64,000 nucleotides of DNA, from positions 29,159 through 93,158 of the forward strand of contig JAAZXR010000008.1 of the NCBI GenBank assembly GCA_014240065.1, read 5' to 3'. The translations under genes and the position numbers were made by a program. Within the stretch, counting starts at the first letter, position 1, and every line of letters begins with the position of its first letter. This stretch comes from Myxococcales bacterium. Lineage in GTDB: Bacteria; Myxococcota_A; Polyangia; Nannocystales; Nannocystaceae. The notes beneath the pieces were generated by a model. The model made no database searches. It had not been told where the DNA came from and saw only the letters and a program-made list of their open reading frames with translations. Positions 30,017 to 44,190 of this stretch are shown in pieces.

Positions 30017-30772
30017 CTAGGCGCGATTCATCAACGAGGCCGCGTACGCGGCGCCGAAGCCGTTGTCGATGTTGACGGTGACGACCCCTGGAGCGCACGC
30101 GGTCAGCGAGGACAGCAGCGCGGCGAGACCGTCAAAGCTCGCGCCGTACCCCACAGAGGTAGGGATGGACACCACCGGCCGCGCGAGCAGGCCCGCGAGC
30201 ACCGACGGCAACGCCGCCTCCATCCCAGCGACCGTGATGACGACGCGGGCCTCCCGGATCTCATCCAGGACACCGAGCAGACGATGCAACCCTGCGACCC
30301 CCACATCAGTCCACGTGCGGACCTCATTCCCCATCACAGCGGCGCAAAGCTCCGCCTCGCGCGCCACCGGGAGGTCGGAGGTCCCCGCGACCACCACCCC
30401 AATCGTCCCCTGGCCGCGGCGCGCGTGGTCGCCATGCGCGTAGGCCACCCGCGCCACCTCATCGTAGCGCAGCGCCTCAAATTCTCGGACGAGCGCCGCG
30501 CCGACCTCCGGGTCCAATCGCGTGCACAGGATATTCTTATGAGCGGACAGCAACGCGCCGACAATCCCCCGCAGCTGCTCAAGAGTCTTGCCCGCGCCAT
30601 AGACCACCTCGGGAAACCCCCGCCGATTCGCGCGGTCCGTGTCGAGCTTCGCGAACCCTAGATCGCGCTCAAATGCCGCCCTCAGGGCTTTCTGTGCCGC
30701 TCCCTCGCTCAGCTCCCCTCGCGCATGCGCGCCGAGGATCTCTCGCAGCCGATCTTCGCGAGCGTCGCTCAC
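30017..30772 (-). CDS. larB: pyridinium-3,5-biscarboxylate mononucleotide synthase LarB
   Basis: A 251-residue protein. LarB carboxylates and hydrolyses nicotinate adenine dinucleotide to pyridinium-3,5-biscarboxylic acid mononucleotide, the first step in nickel-pincer nucleotide (NPN) synthesis. The C-terminal half is PurE-like: GVVVAGTSDLPVAREAE, TDVGVAGLHRLL, VVITVAGMEAALPSVLAGLLARPVVSIPTSVGYG and a closing NIDNGFGAAYAA. GTG 30772 is the start because it overlaps the larE stop as GTGA; longer in-frame extensions run inside larE. It is the last gene of the pyrC-larC-larE-larB operon, and its product feeds the LarA-family enzyme encoded divergently nearby. Confidence 0.93.
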   Translation of the reverse strand: MSDAREDRLREILGAHARGELSEGAAQKALRAAFERDLGFAKLDTDRANRRGFPEVVYGAGKTLEQLRGIVGALLSAHKNILCTRLDPEVGAALVREFEALRYDEVARVAYAHGDHARRGQGTIGVVVAGTSDLPVAREAELCAAVMGNEVRTWTDVGVAGLHRLLGVLDEIREARVVITVAGMEAALPSVLAGLLARPVVSIPTSVGYGASFDGLAALLSSLTACAPGVVTVNIDNGFGAAYAASLMNRA

Positions 30773-31605
30773 GATTGAATTGTCTCTCCCTTCAACACCA
30801 CGTTGAGAGAGCCCGAACGAAACCCAGCGAGGTCCAGCGTGACCCATTGATAGCCCGCCGCCTTGACGCCGCGCACGAGCGCGGCGCGCTCGACGATGGC
30901 TCGCTCGAGCTCCGCGCCACCAAGCTCGATGCGCGCGATGTCCCCGTGATGACGAACGCGGAACTGGGTGAAGCCGAGCGTCCGGACCGCCGCCTCTGCC
31001 CGTTCGATCTTCGCGAGCACCTCCCGGTCCACAGCGACGCCGTGGGGCACGCGGCTCGCGAGACACGGCGACGCGACCTTGGCGTGGTTGGGTATGTCGA
31101 GCATCTTCGCCAGCGCGCGCACGTCTTCTTTTCCGAGCCCTGCTTCGATGAGGGGTTTTTGAACCGACCACGCCGCCGCGGCGCGCATCCCCGGACGATG
31201 TCCTCCGGGCCGCACATCGTCGAGATTGTCACCGGAGAGAACATGGGCGAAGCCCTCGCGTTCAGCCAAGGATCGGAGCCGCTCAAACAGCTCGGACTTG
31301 CAATGAAAGCAGCGATCCCCGGCGTTGGCGCGGTACCCGGGGCGAGAGAGTTCGTCCGTGTCCATGCAGCGGTGCGGCAACGCGAGGTTCTTGGCGAGAT
31401 CCATCGCGTGGATGCGCTCGGATCCCGACAGCGACGCGGAGATCCCCGTCACCGCCAACGCGCGGGCGCCGAGCTCCCGGTGCGCCACCACGGCGACCAG
31501 CGTCGAGTCCACGCCACCCGAGTAGGCGACGACGGCTGAACCATAGCCCCGAATACACTCGGAGAGGCGGTGGTAGCGCGGGTCCGCTGTCGCCGAGGCG
31601 CTCAC
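30769..31605 (-). CDS. larE: ATP-dependent sacrificial sulfur transferase LarE
   Basis: A 278-residue PP-loop enzyme that sulfurates the two carboxylates of the LarB product, consuming ATP and sulfur from a protein cysteine or cluster. The PP-loop YSGGVDSTLVA lies at 28-38, GDNLDD near 125-130 is typical of LarE, and C181 in SPCLASR corresponds to the sacrificial cysteine of Lactobacillus LarE. A further CFHC pair near 99-102 raises the question of cluster-dependent sulfur transfer. The GTG start at 31605 overlaps the larC stop (GTGA), and the larE stop overlaps the larB start the same way. Confidence 0.93.
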   Translation of the reverse strand: MSASATADPRYHRLSECIRGYGSAVVAYSGGVDSTLVAVVAHRELGARALAVTGISASLSGSERIHAMDLAKNLALPHRCMDTDELSRPGYRANAGDRCFHCKSELFERLRSLAEREGFAHVLSGDNLDDVRPGGHRPGMRAAAAWSVQKPLIEAGLGKEDVRALAKMLDIPNHAKVASPCLASRVPHGVAVDREVLAKIERAEAAVRTLGFTQFRVRHHGDIARIELGGAELERAIVERAALVRGVKAAGYQWVTLDLAGFRSGSLNVVLKGETIQS

Positions 31606-32828
31606 TCGTCTCCCCCTTGCGCGACCCGATAGGCGTCACGAGCCGCGCTAGAAACCTCGTGTACCGACACCCCCGCCTGTCGCGCAGCGCGGGCGCACTC
31701 CTCATACTCGGGGATCGCTCCAGCCTCGCTCACCTTCATGGTGATGGTGCCGTAGCTGCAGTGGACCTCCACAAAATCCCGCGACAACACGAAGCGGGGC
31801 GTGCGAGTCACCCGCACCCCGAGCGAACCAGTCGCCTTCATCAACAGCTTGGCGAGACGCGCGTCATCGTCCTGGGCGCACATCACCTCTACGACGGTGC
31901 CCGGCCTCCCCTTCTTCATGATGCACGGGATCGCGGTGACGTCGAGCGCCCCCTGCTCCATCATCAACTCCATCGCGAAGGCCAACTGTTCACCTGTGGC
32001 GTCGTCCACGTTGGTTCGCAAGAGCGCGACGGACTCCCGCTGAAGAGCGGCGCCCGCCCCCTCACCGGTGGACTCGTCGCGCCCGATCCCACGCCCCCCG
32101 ATGAAGGTTCCGACCACACCTCTGAGAACACTCGTCTCGCGCGCGCCCGCGCCATAGCCGACCCGCTGCGGCACAAAGCGGACGCCGGGCTCGATCGGCT
32201 GCCCCAGCGCCGCGACCAGGCTCATGCCCGTGGGGGTCACCATCTCGCCTTCCCCCTGCCCGAGCGCGATCTCAAAGCGACCCGCCGCGAGCTCGAGCAC
32301 GGCGGGAACTGGCACGGGCAATTCACCGTGGTCGCACCTCACCACGCCGCTCCCGGAGGGCAACGGACCGCAGCGAACGCTCGTGATCCCGAGCTCATCA
32401 AGCGCGACACATGCCCCGCAGATATCAAGAATCGCGTCCGCGGCGCCCACCTCATGAAAATGGACCTGCTCCACTGCGATGCGGTGGACCGCGGCCTCCG
32501 CCGTGGCGAGCGCGTAAAAGGTCCTCGTCGCCCACGCTTTCGCCCGCGCCGACATGGACGAGGCCGCGATCTTCGCTTCAATCTCCGGGAGGTGACGGTG
32601 CCCGTGCTCGTGCGGCACGGTGAACAAAATTCGCGTCGCGCCCACCTCCCGACGCGTGGCCTGAGAAACCTCCATCGACCAGTCTGGCAGGTCAAGACTG
32701 CGCAGCGTCGATTCCAGCCCTTCGGCGTCGGCGCCGAGATCGAGGAGCATGCCCAAAAACATGTCGCCAGCGAGCCCGCCCGCCGCGTCGAGCATCAAGG
32801 AGGAGGCTTCAAACTCGCCCGCGCTCAC
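31602..32828 (-). CDS. larC: nickel insertion protein LarC (pyridinium bisthiocarboxylate nickel chelatase)
   Basis: A 408-residue fused LarC that inserts nickel into the sulfurated pyridinium nucleotide in a CTP-dependent step to give NPN. Family landmarks: [21 protein letters not shown] near the N-terminus, His-rich region [24 protein letters not shown], and the C-terminal LarC2 segment [25 protein letters not shown] 32828 is the start because it overlaps the pyrC stop as GTGA, whereas an earlier ATG at 32915 would overlap pyrC by 90 bases. The protein is continuous, unlike the frameshifted larC1/larC2 of Lactobacillus. Confidence 0.93.
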
Positions 32829-33922
32829 GGCTGGACCCTCCAGCGCAAGCGTTGACCCGCGAATAATGGGATCACCTCCGAGTCTCCGAGGGGATAGGTG
32901 GCTGGGACCTCCCACGATTCCCGCGCGAGCGTGATCGTGCCCTCGTTGCGCGCGAGGCCATAAAAGTCTGCGCCGAAGCAGCTCGCGAACCCCTCGAGGA
33001 GGGCGAGGTTACCCGCGTCTTCGAAGGCCTGCGCGTAGAGCTCAATCGCCGCGAAGGCGGTGTAGCAGCCGGCGCAGCCGCAAGCTCGCTCCTTGCGATC
33101 CACGCCATGCGGGGCGGAGTCTGTCCCCGCGAAGAAGCGCGGATCGCCAGACAGCGCCGCGCGCACCAAGGCCTCGCGATGGCGCTCCCGCTTGAGCACA
33201 GGCAAGCAATAATGATGCGGGCGGATCCCTCCCTCGAAGATGGCGTTCCGGTTCATCAAGAGGTGATGGGCGGTGATCGTCGCGGCGACACGCGCTCTCG
33301 CGCCGGAGACGAAGTCGACCGCGTCGCTCGTCGTGATGTGCTCGAGCACCACCGGCAGCGCGGGGAATCGCTCGACGAGCGGCGCGAGGGTCTGCTCGAC
33401 GAACACGCGCTCGCGGTCAAAAATATCGACCGATGGATCCGTGCTCTCCCCGTGAATCAGCAAGGGCATGCCGACGGCCTCCATGCGTTCGAGGGCCGGA
33501 TATACGCCGTCCAAGCGGGCGACACCGGCGTCGGAATTCGTGGTCGCGCCCGCGGGATACAGCTTGACGGCGAGCACCCCCGCAGCCATCGCCGCGTCGA
33601 TATGATCCGGCGTCGTCTGTGGCGCGAGGTACAGCGTCATTTTTGGATCGAAGGTGCTCTCGGGACCGATGGCCTCGACGATCCTCGCGCGATATGCCTG
33701 CGCGTCCTCGGCGGTGAACACCGGCGGCACGAGGTTCGGCATCACCATCGCCCGGCCAAAGACACGGGCCGAGTGACCAACGACCGCTCGCATCGCGTCC
33801 CCGTCTCGGAGGTGAAGGTGCCAGTCATCTGGCCGCCGGATGGTGATTTGCTCGACCACGGTGCGGATATACCAGCCCGGCGCGCCCCATACGATCCGTC
33901 GTGTGCGGGCCGAATCAGCCAT
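32825..33922 (-). CDS. pyrC: dihydroorotase
   Basis: A 365-residue class II dihydroorotase of the E. coli type, interconverting carbamoyl aspartate and dihydroorotate in pyrimidine synthesis. Metal ligands are visible: H35 and H37 in [10 protein letters not shown], carboxylated-lysine site K120 in [12 protein letters not shown]157 in LLIHGES, H195 in EHITT and the Asp in GTDSAPH. The start is uncertain: the family usually begins about nine residues before RRPDDWH, which favours GTG at 33859 or 33856 over ATG 33922. It is first in a four-gene operon with larC, larE and larB, with translational coupling to larC. Confidence 0.93.
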
Positions 33923-34243
33923 TCACACCCCTGCGCCTGCCCCGAGCGCGACAGAAGGCGCGAGACACGCCCCTCTCGGGTTGCGGCGCGCCGGAGGTGC
34001 TCACCAGCCGGTCCTACGAATTCGAGGCTGAAGCGCGCCCGCATGGCGTTCCGCTGCGCCCGCTCGCAGCGTGCATAGCGTTTCGCACTTGCGAGGATCA
34101 CGGGCCCGCGATTTCGCGATCGAAGGAAGTGTCGCGACGCGCGCATGACACTTGACACCTCCGCCTCAAAAGGCCGAAATACCGCCTCTAACGCCCCGTC
34201 CGACACGAATTTCGGACCTCGGGCGCCAAGGAGCGAGGCCCAC
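33923..34243. promoter_or_regulatory. divergent promoter region between pyrC-lar and HAD-larA-elbD operons
   Basis: This gap likely holds promoters for both the NPN-cofactor operon (leftward) and the lipid operon (rightward). On the plus strand TTGACA at 34152-34157 is a candidate -35, with only a weak -10 region near 34176-34182 (GAAATAC). A reading frame from ATG 34145 crosses this element, another reason to take GTG 34244 as the start of the next gene, preceded by AAGGAG at 34229-34233. Confidence 0.4.
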
Positions 34244-34912
34244 GTGACCGCGAGCTATTTCGATGTTGATGGAACCCTGGTGCGCACAAATCTGATGCAC
34301 ACCGCCATCTATTATATGGCGAACCAGATCAACCCGCTGCGCTCTGCCAAGAGCCTGGCTCGGTTGGCCTTGCGCGCCCCCCAACTCCTTTTGTCGGAGC
34401 TTCGCGATCGACGAACATTCAACGAGCAGCTGTTCGAGTGCTTCGCCGGGATGTCAGAGGATCGCCTGGTCTGCCTCGCGGACGACACCTACAACTTCGC
34501 CATGAAGGACGCGCTGTTCACCGGCGCCCGCGACCTCATCTCGAGGTGCAAGGCCGAGGGACAAGAAGTGGTGTTGATCTCTGGCGCCCTCGATTTCCTG
34601 CTCGAGCGGCTCGCGGCGGACCTCGGCGCGGACCATTGGGTCGGCAACCGCCTCGAGATCAACGACGAACACTGCACGGGGAAGCTCTTGCGACCTGTGG
34701 TCGCCGGTCCGACGAAGGCTCGCCTGATCGTCGAGCACGCGCGCACCAAGGGCCACGATCTCGCCGAGTGCTTCGGCTATTCGGACAGCTACTCCGATGT
34801 CCCCATGCTCTCCGTCGTAGGACGACCCGCCGCCGTCAACCCCGACGCGGCCCTCCTGCGGCTCGCTCACGCCTACCAATGGCCTGTCATCCGCCTCGAC
34901 AAGGCCGCCTAA
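34244..34912 (+). CDS. HAD-IB family phosphatase
   Basis: A 222-residue haloacid-dehalogenase-type hydrolase of subfamily IB (SerB/CicA-like). The GTG start at 34244 has a good AAGGAG site and puts the catalytic FDVDGTL (D7, D9) at the usual N-terminal position. ISGALDFLLERLAADLG near 125-140 carries the motif II Ser, KARLIVEHARTKG the motif III Lys and GYSDSYSDVPML the metal-binding acids. It probably dephosphorylates a small phosphate ester. Similar phosphatases often precede fatty-acyl-reductase genes. Here it begins the operon HAD-LarA-ElbD-epimerase-lipid kinase, so a role in ether-lipid precursor formation is likely but inferred. Confidence 0.85.
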   Translation: MTASYFDVDGTLVRTNLMHTAIYYMANQINPLRSAKSLARLALRAPQLLLSELRDRRTFNEQLFECFAGMSEDRLVCLADDTYNFAMKDALFTGARDLISRCKAEGQEVVLISGALDFLLERLAADLGADHWVGNRLEINDEHCTGKLLRPVVAGPTKARLIVEHARTKGHDLAECFGYSDSYSDVPMLSVVGRPAAVNPDAALLRLAHAYQWPVIRLDKAA

Positions 34913-34941
34913 CCACACCCTCTCCAACGAAGAATACTTCC

Positions 34942-36519
34942 GTGTCTAATCCGAATATCGTGTACCTGGACAAGAACAGCGCCCCGAGGGTGATGTTCTC
35001 CGGCGACAGCATCATCGAAGTCGACCTCCCCGTCGGCACGCGCTGCATCTACCCCAAGCCCCCCGTCGACGGCCTCAAGGATGTCGACGCGGCGATTCGC
35101 TACGCCATCAACCACCCCTTCGGCTGCGAGCCGCTGTACGCCAAGCTGCGCCCAGGGATGAAGGTCGTCATCGCGGTCGACGACATCTCGCTGCCGCTGC
35201 CGCCGATGCGCCGCCCCGACATTCGGGCGCGCGTGCTCAACATCGTCCTCGACATGCTCGACGAGCACGGCGTGGAGGACATCGAGATCATCGTCGCGGT
35301 GGCCTACCACCGGCACATGAAGGAGAACGAGATCAAGCGCATGGTGGGCGATCGCGTCTTCAATCGATTCTGGCCCGAGCGACTGTACAACCACGACGCA
35401 GAAGATCCCGAGCAGCTCGCCTACCTCGGAAAAACCGACGCGGGCGAAGAGGTCGAACTCTCAAAAGCCGCGGTCGAGTCCGATCTCATCATCTACGTGA
35501 ACTTGAACCTCGTGCCCATGGACGGCGGCCACAAGTCTGTCGGCGTGGGCCTTTGCAGCGGCCGCACATTGGCCGCACACCACAACCCGCGCACCATGAT
35601 GGAGGGCGGGTCGTATATGACCCCCGAGAACTCCGGCCTGCATCGGAGCGTGGATCGTATCGGGCGCTTCATCAACAAGAAGCTCGACATCTTCCACATC
35701 GAGTCCACCGTCAACAACCGGATGTTTGACGGGAACCTGGACTTCTTGGCGAAGAACCCCGACGACTACTCCTCGTTTGAGAAGTTCAAACTCCGCTCCA
35801 CGCTGTTCGCGTTGGACCGCCTCCCCCAAGCCGCGCGGCAAGAGATCTTTGATCGCTACCGGGCGCCCTACGCCATCACCGGCGTCTTCGCCGGCGAGAC
35901 CGAGGCCTGCCACAAACACACGGTGGACAAGTGCTACGAGCAATATCTCGTCGATGTGGAGGACCAAGCGGACATTCAAATCACCGGCATCCCGTACATC
36001 AGCCCGTACAACGTCGGCGCGTTCTTGAACCCCGTCTTGGTGCAGGTGCTCGCGCAGGGCTACTTCCATAATCTGCACCGCGGCAAGCCCCTGCTCAAAG
36101 AGGGCGGCACGATCATCATCACCCACCCGTGCTCGGATCGTTTCGACCACGAGCAGCACGCGCCGTACACCGAGTTCTTCCACAAGATCCTCACGGAGAC
36201 CAGCGACGACTTCGAGCTTCACAAACGCTACGAGCGCAAGTTCTCCCGCAACCCGGCCTATATCCGCATGTACCGGCACGGGCACAGCTTCCACCCCAAC
36301 CACCCATTTTATATGTGGTACTGGGGCACGGCCGGGCGCAAGCATCAAGGTCGCTGCATCGTCGTCGGCGCCGACAACGAATACGTCCCTCGTATCCTCG
36401 GATACGAGACGGCGCCCTCGATGACCGAGGCGATTCGTATGGCCAAGGAGAGCGCGCCTGAGGATCCTCAGATCACCTGCGTGAACTACACGCCGATCAT
36501 GATGACCCAGGTCAGTTAA
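34942..36519 (+). CDS. LarA-family nickel-pincer nucleotide enzyme, lipid operon paralogue
   Basis: A 525-residue protein from GTG 34942 of the lactate-racemase superfamily (DUF2088). LarA-like blocks: PGMKVVIAVDDISLPLPP near 71-88, VAYHRHM with H123, and GGHKSVGVGLCSGRTLAAHHN with K198 and H213/H214. The H123-K198 and K198-H214 distances (75, 16) closely match H108-K184 (76) and K184-H200 (16) of Lactobacillus plantarum LarA, where K184 anchors the cofactor and H200 binds nickel. At the place of the second catalytic His (H174, ten residues before the Lys) there is no His. About 100 residues longer than LarA. It lies between HAD and ElbD-type genes, and larB/C/E are next door, so it probably catalyses a hydride-shuttling step on a lipid precursor. 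Confidence 0.85.
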   Translation: MSNPNIVYLDKNSAPRVMFSGDSIIEVDLPVGTRCIYPKPPVDGLKDVDAAIRYAINHPFGCEPLYAKLRPGMKVVIAVDDISLPLPPMRRPDIRARVLNIVLDMLDEHGVEDIEIIVAVAYHRHMKENEIKRMVGDRVFNRFWPERLYNHDAEDPEQLAYLGKTDAGEEVELSKAAVESDLIIYVNLNLVPMDGGHKSVGVGLCSGRTLAAHHNPRTMMEGGSYMTPENSGLHRSVDRIGRFINKKLDIFHIESTVNNRMFDGNLDFLAKNPDDYSSFEKFKLRSTLFALDRLPQAARQEIFDRYRAPYAITGVFAGETEACHKHTVDKCYEQYLVDVEDQADIQITGIPYISPYNVGAFLNPVLVQVLAQGYFHNLHRGKPLLKEGGTIIITHPCSDRFDHEQHAPYTEFFHKILTETSDDFELHKRYERKFSRNPAYIRMYRHGHSFHPNHPFYMWYWGTAGRKHQGRCIVVGADNEYVPRILGYETAPSMTEAIRMAKESAPEDPQITCVNYTPIMMTQVS

Positions 36520-36529
36520 AGGAGCCTTT

Positions 36530-39500
36530 GTGACCCAACCCAACGACTCCACGCCCTCTCTCCTTGACGTCGAAGCACAGCTCTCTGGCCAGAGCCTGCT
36601 CGTCATCGGCTGCACAGGCTTCCTCGGGAAGGTGTGGCTCAGCCTCCTGCTCGACCGCTACCCCGACGTCGGGACGCTGTACGTCATGGTCCGAGAGAAG
36701 AAGACCATGGACGCCGAGACTCGATTTTGGAGTGAGATCGCGCCGTCCCCCGTGTTCGACCCGATCCGCGCGACCCGACCCGGCAAGGAATTCGACGAGT
36801 TCATCCGCGCGAAGGTGGTCCCCACCGGCGGCGACGTGAGCCAACCGAACCTCGGCATCTCCGACGACCTGTTCGCGAAGATGAAGAAAGACAAACCCGC
36901 CATCGTGAACGTCGCGGGTGTCGTCGACTTCAACCCGCCGCTCCACGAGGCCCTCGGGGTGAACGCCTTCGGTGCGCAGTATCTCGTGGAGGTCGCCCGC
37001 GCCCTCGGCGACGTCCCCATCCTGCACACCAGCACCTGCTTTGTGGTGGGGAGACGCGACGGGCTGGTCGTCGAGCGCAACCCGCTCGAGTTCCCGTTCC
37101 CGCGCGCCGACGAGCTCGACGTCAGCCACTGGAACGCCGAGAACGAGATGGCAGAGTGCCTCGACGTCGTCGAGCACACGCGGCGGCGCGTTGAGGACGC
37201 CCCGCGCCAGAGCCACCTCCTCGACGAGGCCAAGCGCAACCTCAAGAACAAACGCGAGCCGCTCTCCGGGCCGTCCCTCGACGACGAGCTAAAGAAGGTC
37301 AAGGATCGGTTCGTGCGACAGCGGCTCGTGGAGGCCGGTCGTGAGCGGGCCGAGTTTTGGGGCTGGCCCAATATCTACACCTACACCAAGAGCATCGGCG
37401 AGCAGGTGCTCTTGTCGAGCGGCCTGCCAGTCTCCATCGTCCGTCCGAGCATCGTGGAGTCCTCGGTCAGTTATCCATGTGAGGGGTGGTGTGAGGGGAT
37501 TCAGACCTCCACGCCGATCATGTACCTCGCGATGCAAGGGCTGCAACACATCCCCGTTGGGGATCATTGCCACTACGACCTCATCCCCGTGGACCTGTGC
37601 GCGTCCGGGATGATCGCGGCCCTCGGCGCGTTGCTCAAGCGAGAGCACGAGCCCGTCTACCAGCTGTGTTCCGCGGACAAGAACCCCCTGAAGGTTCGCC
37701 GCGCCGGGGAGCTCATCGCCCTCTCCAAGAGAATCCGCTACCGCGGGAAGTCCGACGGCAACGCCGTCCTCAACCTGTTGCAGGCGCACACCGAGCCCGC
37801 CCTCGTCCCCCTCGAACAGTACAAGCGTCTCTCCGCGCCGGCGTGGCGCAAAGGCACAAAGCTCGCGTCCTCCCTCCTCAAGCGCGCGAAGGGCACCCCC
37901 CTCGCGACGATCACCGAGCCTGTTCGCAAACAAACTGAGGCCATGCACAAGACCTCCTCAGTGGTCGAGGAGATCGTTGGCGCCTTCATCCCGTTCATCA
38001 CGAAGTACGAGTATCGGTTCTCGGCGGCCAACACCCGCGCCCTGCACGCTCGACTCACGCCCGAGGACCAGGTCCGCCTCCCGTGGAACCCCCAGGACAT
38101 CCAGTGGCGCGACTATTGGCTCAACATTCACACGCGGGGCTTCGACACGTGGGCGGAGCCCCTGCTGATCGAGAAACTCGAGAAAACAAAGAAGCCACTC
38201 CGTCGGCACGAGAACCTGGTGAGCATGGTCGCGGACATGACCGACAGGCATGAGCACGCCCTCGCGTTTCAGCGCCTCGAGGGTGAGCAGCTCACCCGCG
38301 TCACCTACTTCGACGTCGATCGCAGGAGCGCGTGCGTCGCGTCAAGACTCGCGCGCATGGGCGTCAAGCCCGGAGACCGCGTGATCCTGTGCGCCAAGAA
38401 CCACCCGGACTGGCCCCTCGCCTACTTCGGGACGCTGCGCGCTGGCGCGACCGCGGTGCCGGTCGACGCCGACATTGACGCGGCCGCCCTCGCCAACATC
38501 ATCCGAGCCTCGGGTGCCGCGGTGATGTTGGATGACGGCGCTGTCGATGTGCCCTCGGACGCTGAGATCACGCGCGTCGACCTCCACGAAATCGCCGCCG
38601 ACGAGCCCGGACTCACGGCGCCGGAGGTCGAGATCAGCGACGACATGATCGCGAGCTTGATCTACACGTCGGGCACCACGGGCGACCCCAAGGGCGTGAT
38701 GCTGTCGCACGAGAACTTCACCGCGCTCATCGCCGCCCTCGCCCCCGTCTTCCCGCTCAAACAATCGGATCGCCTGCTCTCGGTGCTCCCGCTGCACCAC
38801 ACCTTCGAGTTCACCTGCGGCATGTTGCTGCCCTACTCTCGCGGCGCGCGCGTCGTCTATCTCGACGAGGTCGCGGGTGATCGCGTCGTCAAGGGGCTCG
38901 AGCTTGGCAAGGTCACCTCCATGGTCGGCGTCCCGGCCGTGTGGCAGCTCTTGGAGCGGCGCATCCTCGGACAGATCAAAGACAAAGGGTCCACGGTCGA
39001 TCTCATCTTCAACTGGCTGATGAACGTCAACACCGCGACGAGCCGATCGGTCGGACTCGACGTCGGCAAGCTGCTCTTTGGCCCGGTGCACCGGGGCCTC
39101 GGCGGCCATCTCCGCACCCTGATCTCTGGGGGCTCCGCGCTGCCCAAAGACGTGCACAAGACCTTCGCTGGGCTCGGCCTCCACATCGCAGAGGGCTACG
39201 GCCTGACCGAAGCCGCGCCGGTCCTGGCGGTCGCGAGCGCGGGACCAAAAAATCGCGCCGGCTCGGTCGGGAAGGCCATCCCAGGCGTGGAGCTGAAGAT
39301 TGAGCAGCCAGACAACGACGGCGTCGGCGAGGTGTGGGCCAAGGGCCCCAACGTGATGCGCGGCTACGCAGGCGACGACGCCGCCACCGCAGAGGTCATG
39401 GAGGACGGCTGGCTCAAGACCGGTGATCTTGGCAAGCTCGACAAGAAGGGCCGCCTGCAAATCGTGGGACGCCGCAAAGACGTCGTCGTCACGACCACCG

Positions 39501-41161
39501 GTGAGAACGTCTACCCCGACGACGTCGAGAACGCCCTCGGCGCCGTGGATCACCTCGACGAGCTCTCGGTGGTCGGGGTGCCGGACGGACAGGGGAATGA
39601 GCACGTGGCCTGCCTCGGGGTCGTCGACAAACCGGACGCGGCCGGCGCCACCGCCAACAATGAGCGGAAGAAGGCCGCCCACGCCAACCTGCTAGAGGCG
39701 ATCAATCGGCTCCCTCGGCATATGCGACCCACCATCGTGCACGTCTCCGACGCGAAGCTCCCCCGAACCGCGACGCGAAAGGTGAAGCGCAACGACGTCC
39801 GTCGCTTCATCGAGCGACTCGAGCGCGCCGAAAAAGCGATCCGAAAGTCGACGGGGAGCGCGTCCGAGGTGGTGCGCAACGCCATCGCCGCCGTCAGCAA
39901 GCGCGCCGCATCTGAGATCAAGCTCGAGCATCACCTCGCCAACGACCTCGGCCTCGACAGCCTCACGCTCACCGAGCTCGCCGCGGCGCTCGACGCCCAC
40001 GCACCGAACGCCTCGCCAGAAGAGATCTCAAACGCTTCAACTGTGTCCGACCTCGAGCAGCTCGTGGCCCGCGCCGCGCCCAAGCACGTCTCCAAGACCG
40101 CCGAGGTCGAAGACGAGGACGCAGACATCGTGATCCCCGCGCCCGTGCGAGACCTCGCGCTCCCGGTGCTCTCCTCCGCGCAGCGCAACTTCTACGGCAA
40201 GGCGCTCAACGTCAAGATCCGCGGGAAAGGGAACATCCCACACAACCGCCCGACCATCGTGGTCGCCAACCACTCCAGCCACCTCGACATGGGCCTCGTC
40301 AAGTACGCCCTCGGGAGCTACGGAGACGAGCTCGTCGCGCTGGCCGCGGAGGATTACTTCTTCAAGGACAAGTGGCGGCGAGCATGGTTTGAAAACTTCA
40401 CCTACATGGCGCCCCTTGACCGCCGCAGCGGCCTGAGGAAGGCGCTTCGCCAGGCGGGCGAACAGCTCGAGCGCGGTCGAACCGTCCTCATCTTCCCCGA
40501 GGGAACCCGCAGCGATGACGGCGTCATGAAGGAGTTCTTGCCGCTCATTGGCACCCTGATCATGACCCACCAAATCGACGTGCTGCCCATGTGGCTCGGC
40601 GGCGTGCACAAGGTCCTCCCCAAGGGCGCGGCGGTGCCGCGCGGCCGCAAGGTCGAGGCTCGAATTGGTGTCCCGCTCCAGTACGCGCGCCTCCAAGATC
40701 GCGTGGATGGTATGAAGCGCACCGACGCCTACCGCACCATCGCGAAGCTCACGCAGCAGGCGGTGGAGGTGCTCCGCGACGGTGACCTCCTCGATCTTGA
40801 GGCGCCAGAGCCGGCGTTCCCCACCACGGCGAACGGAAAATCCACCCTCGCGATCCTCATGGACGACCTCCAAGGCCAGTACGTCACCGGCGTCGTGGAC
40901 AAGCCGGTGAGCTTCTACTTCTCCATCTCCGACGCCAAGGACAGCAAGTGGAACCTCGTGATGGAGGCGAAGACCTGCAGGCTTGGGCCCGGTCGCCCCG
41001 AGGGGGGCAAGGCCGACTGCGTCCTCAAGACCAGCGAGGAGATCTTCACCAAGATCGTCAAGGAGAGCTACACCCCGTCCGTGGCAGAGTTCATGAGCGG
41101 GAAGGTCAAGAGCAACGACATCGCGCTCCTCCAACTCTTTCAAAAGGCATTTGCGCTGTGA
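36530..41161 (+). CDS. elbD: ElbD-type ether-lipid multienzyme (reductase-ligase-ACP-acyltransferase-SCP2)
   Basis: A 1543-residue fusion from GTG 36530, with AGGAG seven bases upstream. Domains in order: fatty-acyl-CoA/thioester reductase (about 20-530; GCTGFLGK, catalytic YTKS near 283), AMP-forming acyl ligase (about 575-1110; YTSGTTGDPKG near 711, GYGLTEA, GRRKDVVVTTTGENVYP), carrier protein with the phosphopantetheine Ser in LGLDSLT near 1143, PlsC-like acyltransferase (NHSSHLD near 1245, FPEGTRS near 1322), and a C-terminal SCP2-like domain (about 1435-1543). This is the architecture of ElbD of Myxococcus and Stigmatella, which makes alkyl ether lipids from fatty acyl chains. The stop overlaps the next gene (GTGA). 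Confidence 0.9.
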   Translation: MTQPNDSTPSLLDVEAQLSGQSLLVIGCTGFLGKVWLSLLLDRYPDVGTLYVMVREKKTMDAETRFWSEIAPSPVFDPIRATRPGKEFDEFIRAKVVPTGGDVSQPNLGISDDLFAKMKKDKPAIVNVAGVVDFNPPLHEALGVNAFGAQYLVEVARALGDVPILHTSTCFVVGRRDGLVVERNPLEFPFPRADELDVSHWNAENEMAECLDVVEHTRRRVEDAPRQSHLLDEAKRNLKNKREPLSGPSLDDELKKVKDRFVRQRLVEAGRERAEFWGWPNIYTYTKSIGEQVLLSSGLPVSIVRPSIVESSVSYPCEGWCEGIQTSTPIMYLAMQGLQHIPVGDHCHYDLIPVDLCASGMIAALGALLKREHEPVYQLCSADKNPLKVRRAGELIALSKRIRYRGKSDGNAVLNLLQAHTEPALVPLEQYKRLSAPAWRKGTKLASSLLKRAKGTPLATITEPVRKQTEAMHKTSSVVEEIVGAFIPFITKYEYRFSAANTRALHARLTPEDQVRLPWNPQDIQWRDYWLNIHTRGFDTWAEPLLIEKLEKTKKPLRRHENLVSMVADMTDRHEHALAFQRLEGEQLTRVTYFDVDRRSACVASRLARMGVKPGDRVILCAKNHPDWPLAYFGTLRAGATAVPVDADIDAAALANIIRASGAAVMLDDGAVDVPSDAEITRVDLHEIAADEPGLTAPEVEISDDMIASLIYTSGTTGDPKGVMLSHENFTALIAALAPVFPLKQSDRLLSVLPLHHTFEFTCGMLLPYSRGARVVYLDEVAGDRVVKGLELGKVTSMVGVPAVWQLLERRILGQIKDKGSTVDLIFNWLMNVNTATSRSVGLDVGKLLFGPVHRGLGGHLRTLISGGSALPKDVHKTFAGLGLHIAEGYGLTEAAPVLAVASAGPKNRAGSVGKAIPGVELKIEQPDNDGVGEVWAKGPNVMRGYAGDDAATAEVMEDGWLKTGDLGKLDKKGRLQIVGRRKDVVVTTTGENVYPDDVENALGAVDHLDELSVVGVPDGQGNEHVACLGVVDKPDAAGATANNERKKAAHANLLEAINRLPRHMRPTIVHVSDAKLPRTATRKVKRNDVRRFIERLERAEKAIRKSTGSASEVVRNAIAAVSKRAASEIKLEHHLANDLGLDSLTLTELAAALDAHAPNASPEEISNASTVSDLEQLVARAAPKHVSKTAEVEDEDADIVIPAPVRDLALPVLSSAQRNFYGKALNVKIRGKGNIPHNRPTIVVANHSSHLDMGLVKYALGSYGDELVALAAEDYFFKDKWRRAWFENFTYMAPLDRRSGLRKALRQAGEQLERGRTVLIFPEGTRSDDGVMKEFLPLIGTLIMTHQIDVLPMWLGGVHKVLPKGAAVPRGRKVEARIGVPLQYARLQDRVDGMKRTDAYRTIAKLTQQAVEVLRDGDLLDLEAPEPAFPTTANGKSTLAILMDDLQGQYVTGVVDKPVSFYFSISDAKDSKWNLVMEAKTCRLGPGRPEGGKADCVLKTSEEIFTKIVKESYTPSVAEFMSGKVKSNDIALLQLFQKAFAL

Positions 41162-42213
41162 GTGAATCCAACGAAAACGCGGTCGCGACCGCTGGACAGC
41201 GGGTGCTCGTCACGGGCGCCACGGGATTTTTGGGACAGCACCTGTGCGCGGAGCTCATCGCGGCCGGCTGCGAGGTCGTCGCCTTGTGCAGAAACCCTGA
41301 CTCAGGCGCGGCGCGCCTGCTCCCCCCACAAGTGAGGCGACTCCAAGGAGACGTCCTCGACGCCGACGCCGTCGCGAGCGCCGCCCTCGGCTGCGAAGGG
41401 ATGTTCCACTGTGCAGGTCAGGTGTCTCGCGATCCAGAGGACGCCCTGGACATGATGCGGGTGAACTTTGAGGGGACGAAGGTCGCGCTGAGCGCCGCGA
41501 AGACCGCCAAGGTGAAGCGAGTCGTCCTCGCGAGCACGAGCGGCACCCTCGCGATCAGCGAGTCCGACGAAGAGGTCGCCGACGAGAACCTCGAGCGGCC
41601 GCTCGAGCTCATCAATCGCTGGGGCTACTACCGCTCCAAGCTCTACGCCGAACAGTGGGCCCTGGACCAATGCGCTGATGACTTTGAGGTCGTCGTCGCG
41701 AACCCTTCCTTGCTGCTAGGGCCTGGAGATCTCAACGGATCGTCGACTCTGGACGTCCGTCGCTACCTTGAGCAGCCGCTTCCGGTGGCCCCCCACGGCG
41801 GGATCGCCTTCGTCGACGCGCGCGACGCCGCCCGCGGGCTCGTCCTCGCGTTTCAGCGCGGGGTCTCCGGGCGCTGCTACTTGCTGAACGCGTGCAACTG
41901 CAGCACGCGCACCTTCTTGAGCCGCATCGCCCGCGTCAGCGACCTGTCCGCGCCCGTCTTTCGCATGCCCAAGTCTCGCGCCATCTCCCGCCTGAACGTG
42001 TGGCTGACCCAACGGGCCAACGACTTGATGGGCGACGACGACTCGCTCCCCGACGCCCACAGCGTCGATATCGCCCAGCACTTTTGGTACTGCGACGCCT
42101 CGCGCGCGGAGCGTGAGCTGGGATGGCGCGCGCGGGACCCCATGGTCACCCTCGCCGACACTGTTGAAGATCTCCGCCACCGCGGCCTTGTGATGATGAG
42201 CCCCCCCTCGTGA
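41158..42213 (+). CDS. NAD-dependent epimerase/dehydratase of the ether-lipid operon
   Basis: A 351-residue extended SDR starting at GTG 41158, overlapping the elbD stop by GTGA. It has VLVTGATGFLGQHL near 16-29, VVLASTSGTLAI, the catalytic Tyr/Lys in YYRSK near 160, and NPSLLLGPGD near 180. It probably oxidises or reduces a hydroxy/keto group on an intermediate of the pathway, such as a ketone at the glycerol level or an aldehyde. Its stop is again coupled by GTGA to the lipid kinase. The first epimerase in the window (7829) shares only the family. Confidence 0.85.
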   Translation: MSESNENAVATAGQRVLVTGATGFLGQHLCAELIAAGCEVVALCRNPDSGAARLLPPQVRRLQGDVLDADAVASAALGCEGMFHCAGQVSRDPEDALDMMRVNFEGTKVALSAAKTAKVKRVVLASTSGTLAISESDEEVADENLERPLELINRWGYYRSKLYAEQWALDQCADDFEVVVANPSLLLGPGDLNGSSTLDVRRYLEQPLPVAPHGGIAFVDARDAARGLVLAFQRGVSGRCYLLNACNCSTRTFLSRIARVSDLSAPVFRMPKSRAISRLNVWLTQRANDLMGDDDSLPDAHSVDIAQHFWYCDASRAERELGWRARDPMVTLADTVEDLRHRGLVMMSPPS

Positions 42214-43166
42214 ACGACTCGGAATACAAAGACGCCGCCGTCACGGTGGTGATGAACCCCGCCGCGTCGAGCGGCGGCGCCGCGCGCCGGTGGCCCTCCA
42301 TCAAGACGGCGCTCCACCGCGAGTTCTCCAACCTCACGGTGACGCAGACGACAGCCCCCGGCCACGCCACCGCCCTCTGTCAAGCGGCGCTGGAGTCGGG
42401 CGCGGAGCTCATCGTCAGCGTCGGAGGTGATGGGACCAACAACGAGGTGCTCAGCGGGTTCGTCGATGAGGAGGGCAACAACCGCTTCCCCGACCGCATG
42501 CTCGGGCTGGTCGCCGCAGGCACCGGCGGTGACTTTCAGCGACAGTTCGGTGTGCTCCGGCCCGAGAAGCAGGTCGCTCGGATGTCTCGGGCGGCCCCCC
42601 GCACGGTGGACTACGGGCTCGCGACGCTCTCTGCGCCCGGCGGCGCCACCGTCACGCGTCCATTTTTGAACACCTCGAGCGCGGGGATCAGCGGCCTCGT
42701 CTCCGATCTCGTCCTCGAGGCGAACCGATCGCTCGGCCCGACCGCCGCCTACGTGACCGCCTCGCTCAAGGGCATCTTCCGATACAAGAATCGACCGGTC
42801 ATGGTCAGGTTCGACGAGCAGGAGGCCCGACGCGTCGACCTCACCTTGCTCGTGGTGAGCAACGGCCAGTACTTCGGCGCCGGGATGCACGCGTGTCCAC
42901 ACGCGTCGATCACCGACGGCAAGCTCGCCTACGTGCTGATGGAGGGCATGAAAAAATCGCACGTCGTCCATGCCTTGGCGCGGAGCTTCAAGGGCAAGCA
43001 CCTCCGGCTCCGCAACGTGGGCCACGGTCACGCGTCGCGCATCGAGTTATTTCTCCCGCCGGGAAGTGACGCCGAGGTGCTCCTCGAGCTCGACGGCGAG
43101 CAACCCGGTCGCGCCCCAGTCAGCTTCCGCGCCGTCCCCAACGGTATCCGCCTGCTGGTCGCCTGA
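42210..43166 (+). CDS. diacylglycerol kinase-like lipid kinase
   Basis: A 318-residue protein of the DAGK catalytic/YegS family. NPAASSGGAARRWP near 16 is the N-terminal nucleotide-binding block, SVGGDGTNNEVLSGF near 70-84 the GGDGT motif, and GLVAAGTGGDFQRQFG near 97 the conserved GTGxDF region. It phosphorylates diacylglycerol, or here possibly an alkylacylglycerol or long-chain base. GTG 42210 overlaps the epimerase stop, making it the last gene of the coupled run elbD-epimerase-kinase. A kinase at the end of an ether-lipid operon fits conversion of an alkylacyl glycerol to its phosphatidic acid analogue. Confidence 0.88.
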   Translation: MNDSEYKDAAVTVVMNPAASSGGAARRWPSIKTALHREFSNLTVTQTTAPGHATALCQAALESGAELIVSVGGDGTNNEVLSGFVDEEGNNRFPDRMLGLVAAGTGGDFQRQFGVLRPEKQVARMSRAAPRTVDYGLATLSAPGGATVTRPFLNTSSAGISGLVSDLVLEANRSLGPTAAYVTASLKGIFRYKNRPVMVRFDEQEARRVDLTLLVVSNGQYFGAGMHACPHASITDGKLAYVLMEGMKKSHVVHALARSFKGKHLRLRNVGHGHASRIELFLPPGSDAEVLLELDGEQPGRAPVSFRAVPNGIRLLVA

Positions 43167-43224
43167 TCCGACGGATGCGCCAGTCGGCGGGGCTGCGTCC
43201 GCCTCGGTGGGCTACACTCCCGGC

Positions 43225-44190
43225 ATGTGGAAACGCGGTGCACTCTTCGCCTCCCTCCTCGCCAGTTCCTGCGCATCGGAGGAGGGGGACTCGAACTCCG
43301 ACGACGCGACGACGACCTCATCGACCGCGGATGCCGGTGACGGCGACGGTGACGGCGACGGTGACGGTGACGGCGACGGTGACGGCGACGGTGACGGCGA
43401 CGGCGACAGCCCGGCCCTGCCTCGACCCACCGCCACCTGCCCCGCTGTCCTCCTCGGCGAGGTGGAATTCTCCGCCGCAGGCATCCCCTCCCGCTTTGTC
43501 CGAATCCAGATGTCCGAGCAGGCCGCCGAGCTGGATGGCCCGGTCGTCTTCTACTGGCATGGCACAGGCTCCTCGCCAGACGAGGCCACCTACGGACTCT
43601 CAGACGCGACCGTGCAAGAGATCTTGGATCAAGGTGGCGCCGTCGTCGCGCCCTACCGCGACCCGGCCGCGGGCACCTTCCCGTGGCATCTGGTGACCGG
43701 CTCCAAGGAGGACGACCTCATCCTCGCGGATGAGGTGCTCGGCTGTCTCCATGAGGCGGTGGGGATCGATCCCACCCGCATTCACAGCATCGGGATGAGC
43801 GCCGGTGGAATCCAGACCACGCAGATGAGCTTTCGACGCTCCAACTACATCGCGAGCGTGGTGACCTACTCTGGCGGGTTGATCTTGACAGACGACCCAC
43901 CGACTCCGAACCCGGACAACAAATTCGCGGCCATGATCTTTCACGGCGGCCCCGAAGACATCGTCTATATCTCCTTTGAAGACGCGAGCGACGCCTACCT
44001 CGCGGCGCTCCAAGACCGAGACCACTTCGCCTTCATCTGCGACCATGGAAATGGGCACACGATCCCCGCGGACGCGCGGCCGTCGGTGTGGGATTTTTTC
44101 CAGGCCCACCCGTGGGGGACCGCGCCATCCCCGTACGCCGAGGCGCTCCCGAGCGACTACCCTTCATACTGCGCGCTGACTGAGCCATGA
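43225..44190 (+). CDS. PHB-depolymerase/esterase-like lipoprotein with GD linker
   Basis: A 321-residue lipoprotein from ATG 43225, with a short signal peptide and lipobox ASSC. A Ser/Thr/Asp-rich stretch and 12 consecutive Gly-Asp pairs (about residues 38-61) form the linker. The rest is an alpha/beta hydrolase: FYWHGTGSSPDEATYG, SIGMSAGGIQT with the nucleophile Ser, MIFHGGPEDIVYI with the acid, and CDHGNGHTIP with the His. The arrangement matches polyhydroxyalkanoate depolymerase/feruloyl-esterase-like proteins (LpqC type). It is probably displayed on the outer membrane. The preceding lipid-kinase gene ends 58 bases upstream; cotranscription is uncertain. Confidence 0.82.
   Translation: MWKRGALFASLLASSCASEEGDSNSDDATTTSSTADAGDGDGDGDGDGDGDGDGDGDGDGDSPALPRPTATCPAVLLGEVEFSAAGIPSRFVRIQMSEQAAELDGPVVFYWHGTGSSPDEATYGLSDATVQEILDQGGAVVAPYRDPAAGTFPWHLVTGSKEDDLILADEVLGCLHEAVGIDPTRIHSIGMSAGGIQTTQMSFRRSNYIASVVTYSGGLILTDDPPTPNPDNKFAAMIFHGGPEDIVYISFEDASDAYLAALQDRDHFAFICDHGNGHTIPADARPSVWDFFQAHPWGTAPSPYAEALPSDYPSYCALTEP
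43336..43407 (+). repeat. (Gly-Asp)12 hexanucleotide repeat
   Basis: Twelve six-base units (GGT/GGC-GAC) encode the spacer of the esterase lipoprotein. The tract is perfect at protein level and varied at the third base. Confidence 0.9.

What the first reader, a model, noticed from the sequence alone, without database searches (positions are those of the whole stretch)
30017..43166. Nickel-pincer nucleotide enzyme embedded in an ether-lipid operon, with its cofactor genes divergently adjacent
The plus-strand operon HAD phosphatase - LarA-family protein - ElbD-type multienzyme - epimerase - lipid kinase is divergent from pyrC-larC-larE-larB, which make NPN. Lactate racemase-type enzymes are known for hydroxy-acid racemisation; a member inside an ElbD operon, supplied by its own cofactor genes, suggests an undescribed NPN-dependent step in bacterial ether-lipid synthesis, such as epimerisation or hydride transfer on a glycerol- or hydroxyacyl-level intermediate. 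Sequence supports the family calls and gene order; the lipid-linked function is inference.
Basis: partly seen in the sequence, partly recalled or inferred. Interest (0 to 1): 0.88.

Follow-up and report, generated by a model that had tools for sequence, protein, structure and literature searches.

The report
Nickel-enzyme homolog in ether-lipid operon (ElbC)
A protein of a family whose studied members use a nickel cofactor is encoded inside the operon that myxobacteria use to make ether lipids, and in the genomes surveyed it is found almost only where that operon's main enzyme is found too, so it likely carries out a missing, nickel-dependent step of ether-lipid synthesis.

Summary
Observation confirmed. 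The + strand run HAD - LarA homolog - ElbD (reductase-synthetase-carrier-acyltransferase-SCP2) - SDR - lipid kinase (34145-43166) is divergent from pyrC-larC-larE-larB. The order HAD-LarA-ElbD-SDR is that of M. xanthus elbB-C-D-E, whose elbC was published as 'unknown function'; M. xanthus DK1622 MXAN_1529 is this LarA homolog. Across 282 genomes of the phylum, ElbC-type LarA and ElbD occur together in 80, ElbC alone in 2, ElbD alone in 2, neither in 198; 62 of 80 are adjacent. In Acidobacteriota 18 of 18 ElbC genomes have a reductase partner. LarC is in 77 of 82 ElbC genomes. The flavin ether synthase AGPS is nearly exclusive with the pair (1 of 84). ElbC keeps the NPN lysine, the nickel histidine and one catalytic histidine, but lacks the second histidine and the carboxylate-binding arginine, so it is unlikely to be a lactate-type racemase. 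Inferred, not shown: NPN binding, and a hydride step at the glycerol backbone during ether-bond formation. Lar genes beside elbC are local (1 of 53 other loci).

The parts
34942..36519 (+). elbC homolog: LarA-superfamily protein, LarAH14/15/16 family, 525 aa
34145..34912 (+). elbB homolog: HAD-IB phosphatase-like protein
   Evidence: PF12710 116.1 bits, TIGR01490 130.1 over cut-off 98.3
36530..41161 (+). elbD homolog: fatty acyl reductase - acyl-CoA/ACP synthetase - carrier protein - PlsC-type acyltransferase - SCP2
   Evidence: PF07993, PF00501, PF00550, PF01553; PF02036 SCP2 in the C-terminal 124 aa scanned alone, 24.7 bits over 21.3
41158..42213 (+). elbE homolog: NAD-dependent epimerase/dehydratase-family SDR
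   Evidence: PF01370 106.8 bits; start GTG overlaps the elbD stop
42210..43166 (+). YegS/DgkB-type lipid kinase
   Evidence: PF00781 and PF19279; start overlaps the SDR stop
30017..30771 (-). larB, NPN cofactor synthesis (start approximate; ORF runs to 31171)
   Evidence: NF033503 268.6 bits over 175
30769..31605 (-). larE, NPN cofactor synthesis
   Evidence: TIGR00268 287.1 bits over 150
31602..32915 (-). larC, nickel insertion (ORF; true start likely near 32800)
   Evidence: PF01969 403.9 bits; TIGR00299 180.8 over 90
32825..33922 (-). pyrC, dihydroorotase; passenger in the lar gene run
   Evidence: TIGR00856 425.9 bits over 292.95

Best explanation
By gene order the LarA-family gene at 34942-36519 is the window's copy of elbC, the unassigned gene of the myxobacterial ether-lipid (elb) operon, and its protein is predicted to hold the nickel-pincer nucleotide and would most likely use it to lift a hydride reversibly from a carbinol of the glycerol backbone while the alkyl ether bond is made. 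Proposed order of events (all inferred): ElbD activates a fatty acid on its carrier domain and its reductase domain makes the fatty aldehyde or alcohol; an acyltransferase loads a glycerol backbone; the HAD protein removes a phosphate to give the ElbC substrate; ElbC removes the C2 hydride with its single histidine as base, giving a bound glycerone-like ketone at which the sn-1 acyl can be exchanged for an alkoxy group (the state that flavin AGPS reaches from acyl-dihydroxyacetone phosphate); the hydride is returned to the same face, or the ketone is reduced by the SDR; kinase and acyltransferase complete the phospholipid. Sub-claims: elbC identity and pathway membership about 0.9; NPN dependence about 0.8; hydride transfer at glycerol C2 about 0.35.
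For: Identity: genus Myxococcus loci L084, L090, L102, L105 read SDR-HAD-LarA-ElbD-SDR, the published elbA-E order; M. xanthus DK1622 MXAN_1529 is 99% identical to the L084 protein and scores 848.8 over 740 for LarAH14/15/16. Linkage: ElbC and ElbD both in 80 of 282 genomes, one alone in 4, neither in 198; 18 of the 80 pairs were not scored as adjacent, so co-occurrence is not only hitch-hiking; in 8 families that hold both states the two genes come and go together apart from two contig-edge cases; Acidobacteriota 18 of 18. In three Acidobacteria loci (L068, L074, L103) the partner is a stand-alone reductase in a frame of 508-584 aa, which points to the fatty aldehyde or alcohol as shared substrate. 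NPN: LarC in 77 of 82 ElbC genomes against 130 of 200 others, and in 15 of 15 genomes of chosen named loci, 14 over cut-off; NPN lysine K198, nickel histidine H214, ribose aspartate D81 and catalytic H123 invariant in 96 of 96 sequences. Not a classic racemase: the position of the second histidine reads N189 in 88 and T in 8 of 96, that of Arg75 reads L, V or M in 96 of 96. AGPS orthologs are in 30 of 282 genomes but in only 1 of the 84 with ElbC or ElbD; the window genome has none at E 1e-60. An Acidobacteria cluster (L111) adds PlsY, a glycerol-3-phosphate acyltransferase.
Against: No biochemistry exists for ElbC that I saw. In M. xanthus an elbB insertion, thought polar, was partly rescued by elbD expression alone, so ElbC may not be strictly required there. 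M. xanthus (review), Myxococcus sp. CA023 and G258 hold AGPS as well as ElbC. Five of 82 ElbC genomes lack a LarC hit (draft genomes, 77-93% complete). LarC is common without ElbC or ElbD (128 of 198), so its presence is only weakly specific. Nine Acidobacteriota genomes have a more distant ElbD-like protein (356-381 bits), only 2 of them with an ElbC-like LarA, and four more without ElbC have a reductase of 510-515 bits in a frame of 795-812 aa. ElbD homologs do not prove ether lipids: Pontiella has them, and none were detected (PMC11868695, passage). The lipid kinase was found near elbC in only 10 of 49 loci with enough sequence. Identity to solved relatives is 26% or less, so the active-site mapping, above all of N187/N189, is approximate. 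The C2 step rests on pathway logic alone.
Confidence: 0.5

Rival explanations
1. ElbC is an NPN hydride shuttle for reductive etherification: a fatty aldehyde from the ElbD reductase would form a hemiacetal with a glycerol hydroxyl, and ElbC would pass a hydride to it, after which the SDR restores the backbone.
For: The reductase is the most constant partner (80 of 82 and 18 of 18 ElbC genomes); an i15:0 aldehyde is lost in elbD mutants (passage); an SDR lies downstream of LarA in 34 of 49 loci with enough sequence.
Against: As far as I recall NPN is known only as a redox-neutral shuttle within one substrate; no hydride donor is identified.
Confidence: 0.2
2. ElbC is a one-way or two-way epimerase of a 2-hydroxy fatty acid or another alpha-hydroxy acid that is then built into the ether lipid.
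For: All activities found in PMC7583248 invert C2 of an alpha-hydroxy acid; NCBIfam names the family 'NPN-dependent hydroxyacid isomerase'.
Against: LarAH14 of Frankia was inactive in all seven assays listed; second histidine and carboxylate-binding arginine are lost.
Confidence: 0.13
3. ElbC acts on a polyol or sugar phosphate that supplies the backbone or head group, as proposed for its closest solved relatives LarASp and LarABw.
For: Best structural match is 9q3k/9q3j, for which a phosphorylated carbohydrate ligand was suggested; HAD phosphatase-like gene upstream in 61 of 69 loci.
Against: The neighbours of ElbC that were identified are lipid genes; identity to those proteins is 26% and 23%.
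Confidence: 0.12
4. ElbC has lost catalysis and works as a scaffold or lipid-binding partner of ElbD.
For: It lacks one catalytic histidine.
Against: Cofactor and nickel residues are invariant in 96 of 96; LarC co-occurs; LarASp with the same loss still binds NPN.
Confidence: 0.05

Closest known systems
Myxococcus xanthus elbA-elbE operon (ether lipid biosynthesis)
   Same: Gene order HAD-LarA-ElbD-SDR; M. xanthus DK1622 MXAN_1529 is in the same family
   Different: The window lacks the elbA-type SDR upstream of the HAD gene, and has a lipid kinase at the end, an SCP2 domain on ElbD and divergent pyrC-larCEB; the literature seen gives elbC no function
Single-histidine LarA homologs LarASp and LarABw (PDB 9q2u/9q3k, 9q3j)
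   Different: 26% and 23% identity; the Lys76 position is Leu/Val/Met and the His306 position Pro; lipid instead of sugar-metabolism neighbours
Lactate racemase LarA (5huq) and other two-histidine racemases
   Different: His174 and Arg75 equivalents missing; 76-85 bits against a family cut-off of 460
Alkylglycerone-phosphate synthase (AGPS), flavin ether synthase
   Same: Proposed to serve the same end, forming an sn-1 alkyl ether; nearly exclusive with ElbC/ElbD across 282 genomes
   Different: Unrelated family and cofactor (FAD)

Membership tests
LarA superfamily (NPN enzymes) | Lar_N domain and LarA fold | tested here: met
LarA superfamily (NPN enzymes) | Lysine that links NPN and histidine that ligates nickel | tested here: met
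   K198 and H214 in 96 of 96 sequences, mapped by profile alignment to LarA and LarASp chains
LarA superfamily (NPN enzymes) | NPN and nickel actually bound | not testable with these tools
   Only indirect: LarC in 77 of 82 ElbC genomes
Two-histidine hydroxyacid racemases (LarA, Mar, GntE) | Second catalytic histidine (His174 of LarA) | tested here: not met
   Aligned position N189 (N in 88, T in 8 of 96); N187 is invariant, so no histidine there either
Two-histidine hydroxyacid racemases (LarA, Mar, GntE) | Arg75 that holds the substrate carboxylate | tested here: not met
   L84 position: L 55, V 21, M 20 of 96
LarAH14/15/16 (NCBIfam NF052592) | Score over curated cut-off 740 | tested here: met
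   779.9 bits; M. xanthus MXAN_1529 848.8
Single-histidine LarA subfamily (LarASp/LarABw) | Asn in place of His174 with the other active-site residues (Lys76, His306, Tyr307, His401) | tested here: inconclusive
   Asn (88 of 96), Tyr and His401 equivalents present; Lys76 and His306 equivalents are Leu/Val/Met and Pro
elb ether-lipid operon | HAD, ElbC, ElbD with reductase-synthetase-carrier-acyltransferase domains, SDR in this order | tested here: met
   Window; the order HAD-LarA-reductase-SDR in 31 of 80 named loci, many of the others being cut by contig ends
elb ether-lipid operon | Makes alkyl or vinyl ether lipids | not testable with these tools
   Reported in M. xanthus for elbD (passage); no lipid data for this organism

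The most novel reading that the evidence does not exclude
ElbC is the missing ether-forming catalyst of the ElbD pathway: a nickel enzyme that transiently oxidises glycerol C2 and so replaces flavin-dependent AGPS, as far as I know the first NPN enzyme that acts on something other than a hydroxy acid and the first nickel enzyme in membrane-lipid synthesis.
Probability: 0.25. Interest if true: 0.94.

Novelty: new variant of a known kind. Interest (0 to 1): 0.82.

Why it matters
The steps by which ElbD-type bacteria build ether bonds are described as unknown (PMC9131029, passages), and what the single-histidine LarA proteins do is open too (PMC12611868). Joining the two gives both a testable answer in a laboratory model: if nickel and the NPN genes are needed for myxobacterial ether lipids and plasmalogens, NPN chemistry reaches beyond hydroxy acids. 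It also gives a marker for possible ether-lipid producers among Acidobacteriota, where the sources of ether lipids used as climate proxies are being sought (PMC10087280, abstract start and passages).

Tried and rejected
Chance neighbourhood: rejected by co-occurrence in 80 of 84 genomes, 18 pairs not scored as adjacent. Of these 18, G102 and G276 have both genes on one contig about 27 and 8 kb apart, and G145 is a gene split over two contigs whose second piece lies next to ElbD. The four exceptions look like assembly edges: ElbC of G232 and G263 lies at a contig end, ElbD of G188 and G264 begins at base 3 of its contig. Counting rule: 17 genomes with only weak hits to other LarA proteins (at most 86 bits) were dropped from ElbC; of the 115 genomes with reductase hits, 11 with full-length hits in frames of 558-888 aa (375-514 bits) and 22 with weaker, mostly split hits were dropped from ElbD; G038, G068 and G081 were kept on partial hits because they lie next to ElbC. 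With a plain cut at 520 bits, 77 genomes count as ElbD, 76 of them with ElbC, and 6 ElbC genomes are without. The Fisher p (2e-65) ignores kinship; one search gives the by-family view, only for genomes whose family was printed. Acidobacteriota: 4 of the 18 partners (G334, G391, G427, G484) are low-scoring, partial or stand-alone reductases accepted because they lie within 820 nt of ElbC.

The idea that the 11 dropped reductases are FAR-GNPAT/AGPS operons was wrong for the two looked at (L112, L113): they sit in a HAD - reductase cluster with a pyruvyl-transferase-like gene (L112: also a second reductase, an AMP ligase and an enoyl-CoA hydratase), and no AGPS was among the proteins scanned. AGPS was then taken from Myxococcus sp. 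CA023 (L124, directly upstream of the frame with the second reductase hit; best PDB match peroxisomal alkyldihydroxyacetonephosphate synthase, 575 bits) and sought in the 282 genomes; matches at or below 251 bits (29-34% identity, apart from a fragment of the G054 gene) were not counted as AGPS.

Loci without ElbD next to LarA (L039, L064): the HAD-LarA pair has neighbours that are unrelated or without a Pfam match. Conservation count: window, 80 named and 15 unnamed loci; the other 15 of the 30 unnamed loci were dropped because the script read one orientation only. No tree was built; placement rests on curated family scores. Literature: no paper in the library holds 'lactate racemase' with 'ether lipid', 'nickel-pincer nucleotide' with 'lipid biosynthesis' or DUF2088 with operon; the three hits for ElbD plus LarA are an author's name; ElbC with ether lipid gives one paper; no paper names MXAN_1529. 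Lorenzen 2014 was not fetched or read.
Full report
What is there. The plus-strand genes 34145-43166 are a compact run: HAD-IB protein, LarA homolog (GTG 34942 to 36519), ElbD-type protein of 1543 aa, SDR (GTG 41158 overlapping the ElbD stop) and lipid kinase (GTG 42210 overlapping the SDR stop). Pfam finds reductase, AMP-binding, carrier and acyltransferase domains in ElbD, and an SCP2 domain at its end when that piece is scanned alone. The opposite strand holds pyrC, larC, larE and larB, each over its NCBIfam cut-off.

Which operon. A review of myxobacterial plasmalogens (PMC9131029, passages) describes elbA (NAD-dependent epimerase family), elbB (HAD family), elbC (unknown function), elbD (FAR, ACS, ACP, acyltransferase) and elbE (NAD-dependent epimerase family). 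Loci of the genus Myxococcus show SDR-HAD-LarA-ElbD-SDR (L084 M. vastator, L090, L102, L105). A protein search with the L084 protein returned 'hypothetical protein MXAN_1529 [Myxococcus xanthus DK 1622]' at 99% identity, which scores 848.8 over the cut-off 740 for LarAH14/15/16. PMC4048283 (one passage) names MXAN1528 as a predicted FadD homolog, as expected for ElbD next door; that MXAN_1528 is elbD is recalled, not read. So elbC is by gene order and family a LarA homolog. My searches of the library found no paper that says so (of the 859 papers matched only 25 were listed), but database names such as 'lactate racemase domain-containing protein' exist.

Linkage. In 282 genomes of the phylum, 99 had hits to NF052592: 73 over cut-off, 9 partial or just under, 17 with only weak hits to other LarA proteins. 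ElbD-type reductase was sought with a profile of 18 ElbD reductase domains. Both were found in 80 genomes, ElbC alone in 2, ElbD alone in 2, neither in 198; the choices behind these counts and a plain-threshold version (76 of 77) are in Tried and rejected. In 62 of 80 the reductase lies downstream on the same strand within 6 kb. Eight families with both states show joint presence and absence apart from two contig-edge cases; in the window's own family 2 of 6 have both and 4 neither. Of the 17 genomes with only other LarA proteins, one (G264) has ElbD. In 199 Acidobacteriota genomes, 18 have ElbC over cut-off and all 18 a reductase hit, 17 on the same contig and strand; the 14 reductases of 686 bits or more are all in ElbC genomes. 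Against this, nine genomes hold a more distant ElbD-like protein (356-381 bits), only two of them with an ElbC-like LarA (501 and 519 bits), and four genomes without ElbC have a reductase of 510-515 bits in a frame of 795-812 aa.

Cofactor. LarC occurs in 77 of 82 ElbC genomes and 130 of 200 others, and in 15 of 15 genomes of chosen named loci, 14 over the cut-off. Adjacent lar genes are rare: 1 (Plesiocystis pacifica) of 53 named loci with at least 5 kb upstream.

Neighbours. In named loci with enough sequence, the HAD gene is upstream in 61 of 69, the reductase downstream in 34 of 49, an SDR in 34 of 49 and the lipid kinase in 10 of 49 (tblastn with the window's proteins, so distant versions can be missed). 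So the kinase is not a fixed part.

An alternative to AGPS. A Myxococcus AGPS (575 bits to 4bby) has clear orthologs (503 bits or more) in 30 of 282 genomes, of which only G258 has ElbC or ElbD (Fisher p 2.5e-4, kinship ignored; 15 of the 30 are in one family). In that family (f19) the one ElbC/ElbD genome, G074, lacks AGPS; in genus g73, G037 has ElbC/ElbD and G067 AGPS. The window genome has no AGPS hit at E 1e-60. M. xanthus and Myxococcus sp. CA023 have both, and the review says that disrupting MXAN_1676 (AGPS) lowers ether lipids little while the route through ElbD predominates.

Mechanism. Shown: gene content, order, co-occurrence, residues and predicted fold. Inferred: NPN loading, substrate and reaction. 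A site with one acid/base histidine, no carboxylate clamp and a set of glycerolipid partners (reductase, acyltransferases, phosphatase-like HAD, SDR, at times a kinase; PlsY in L111) suggests hydride removal from a glycerol carbinol and return to the same face, rather than inversion. This would supply, without dihydroxyacetone phosphate, the ketone state from which AGPS works. The main published cautions are that elbD alone partly rescued an elbB insertion in M. xanthus, and that an organism with ElbD homologs showed no ether lipids.

Noticed in passing
L112:5295-12788 and L113:4783-9882: Two family members of the window organism that lack elbC/elbD carry another reductase cluster: HAD - fatty acyl reductase - polysaccharide pyruvyl transferase-like, in L112 with a second reductase, an AMP ligase and an enoyl-CoA hydratase; product unknown.
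   Followed up: partly
L039:9274-11584, L064:8701-11569: HAD-LarA pair far from ElbD among unrelated genes; the HAD gene is the closest partner of elbC (61 of 69 loci).
   Followed up: partly
L068, L074, L103, L111 (Acidobacteria and relatives): Operon variants with a stand-alone reductase, or with carrier-synthetase-acyltransferase fused in another order plus PlsY; lipid kinase kept in these.
   Followed up: partly
G444:C67:8268-9803 and G304:C10:392-1930: LarA proteins half-way to ElbC (519 and 501 bits) in genomes with a more distant ElbD-like protein; a possible second clade of the pair.
   Followed up: no
L093: Record titled Comamonas sp. KCTC 72670 carries an elb cluster laid out like that of Myxococcus; the label may be wrong.
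   Followed up: no
window:44231-45022 (-): ORF with long runs of GDGDGD repeats; a similar run lies in the neighbouring + strand ORF 42970-44190.
   Followed up: no
window:32825-33922 (-): pyrC lies in one run with larC-larE-larB; whether its activity matters for NPN synthesis is unknown.
   Followed up: no
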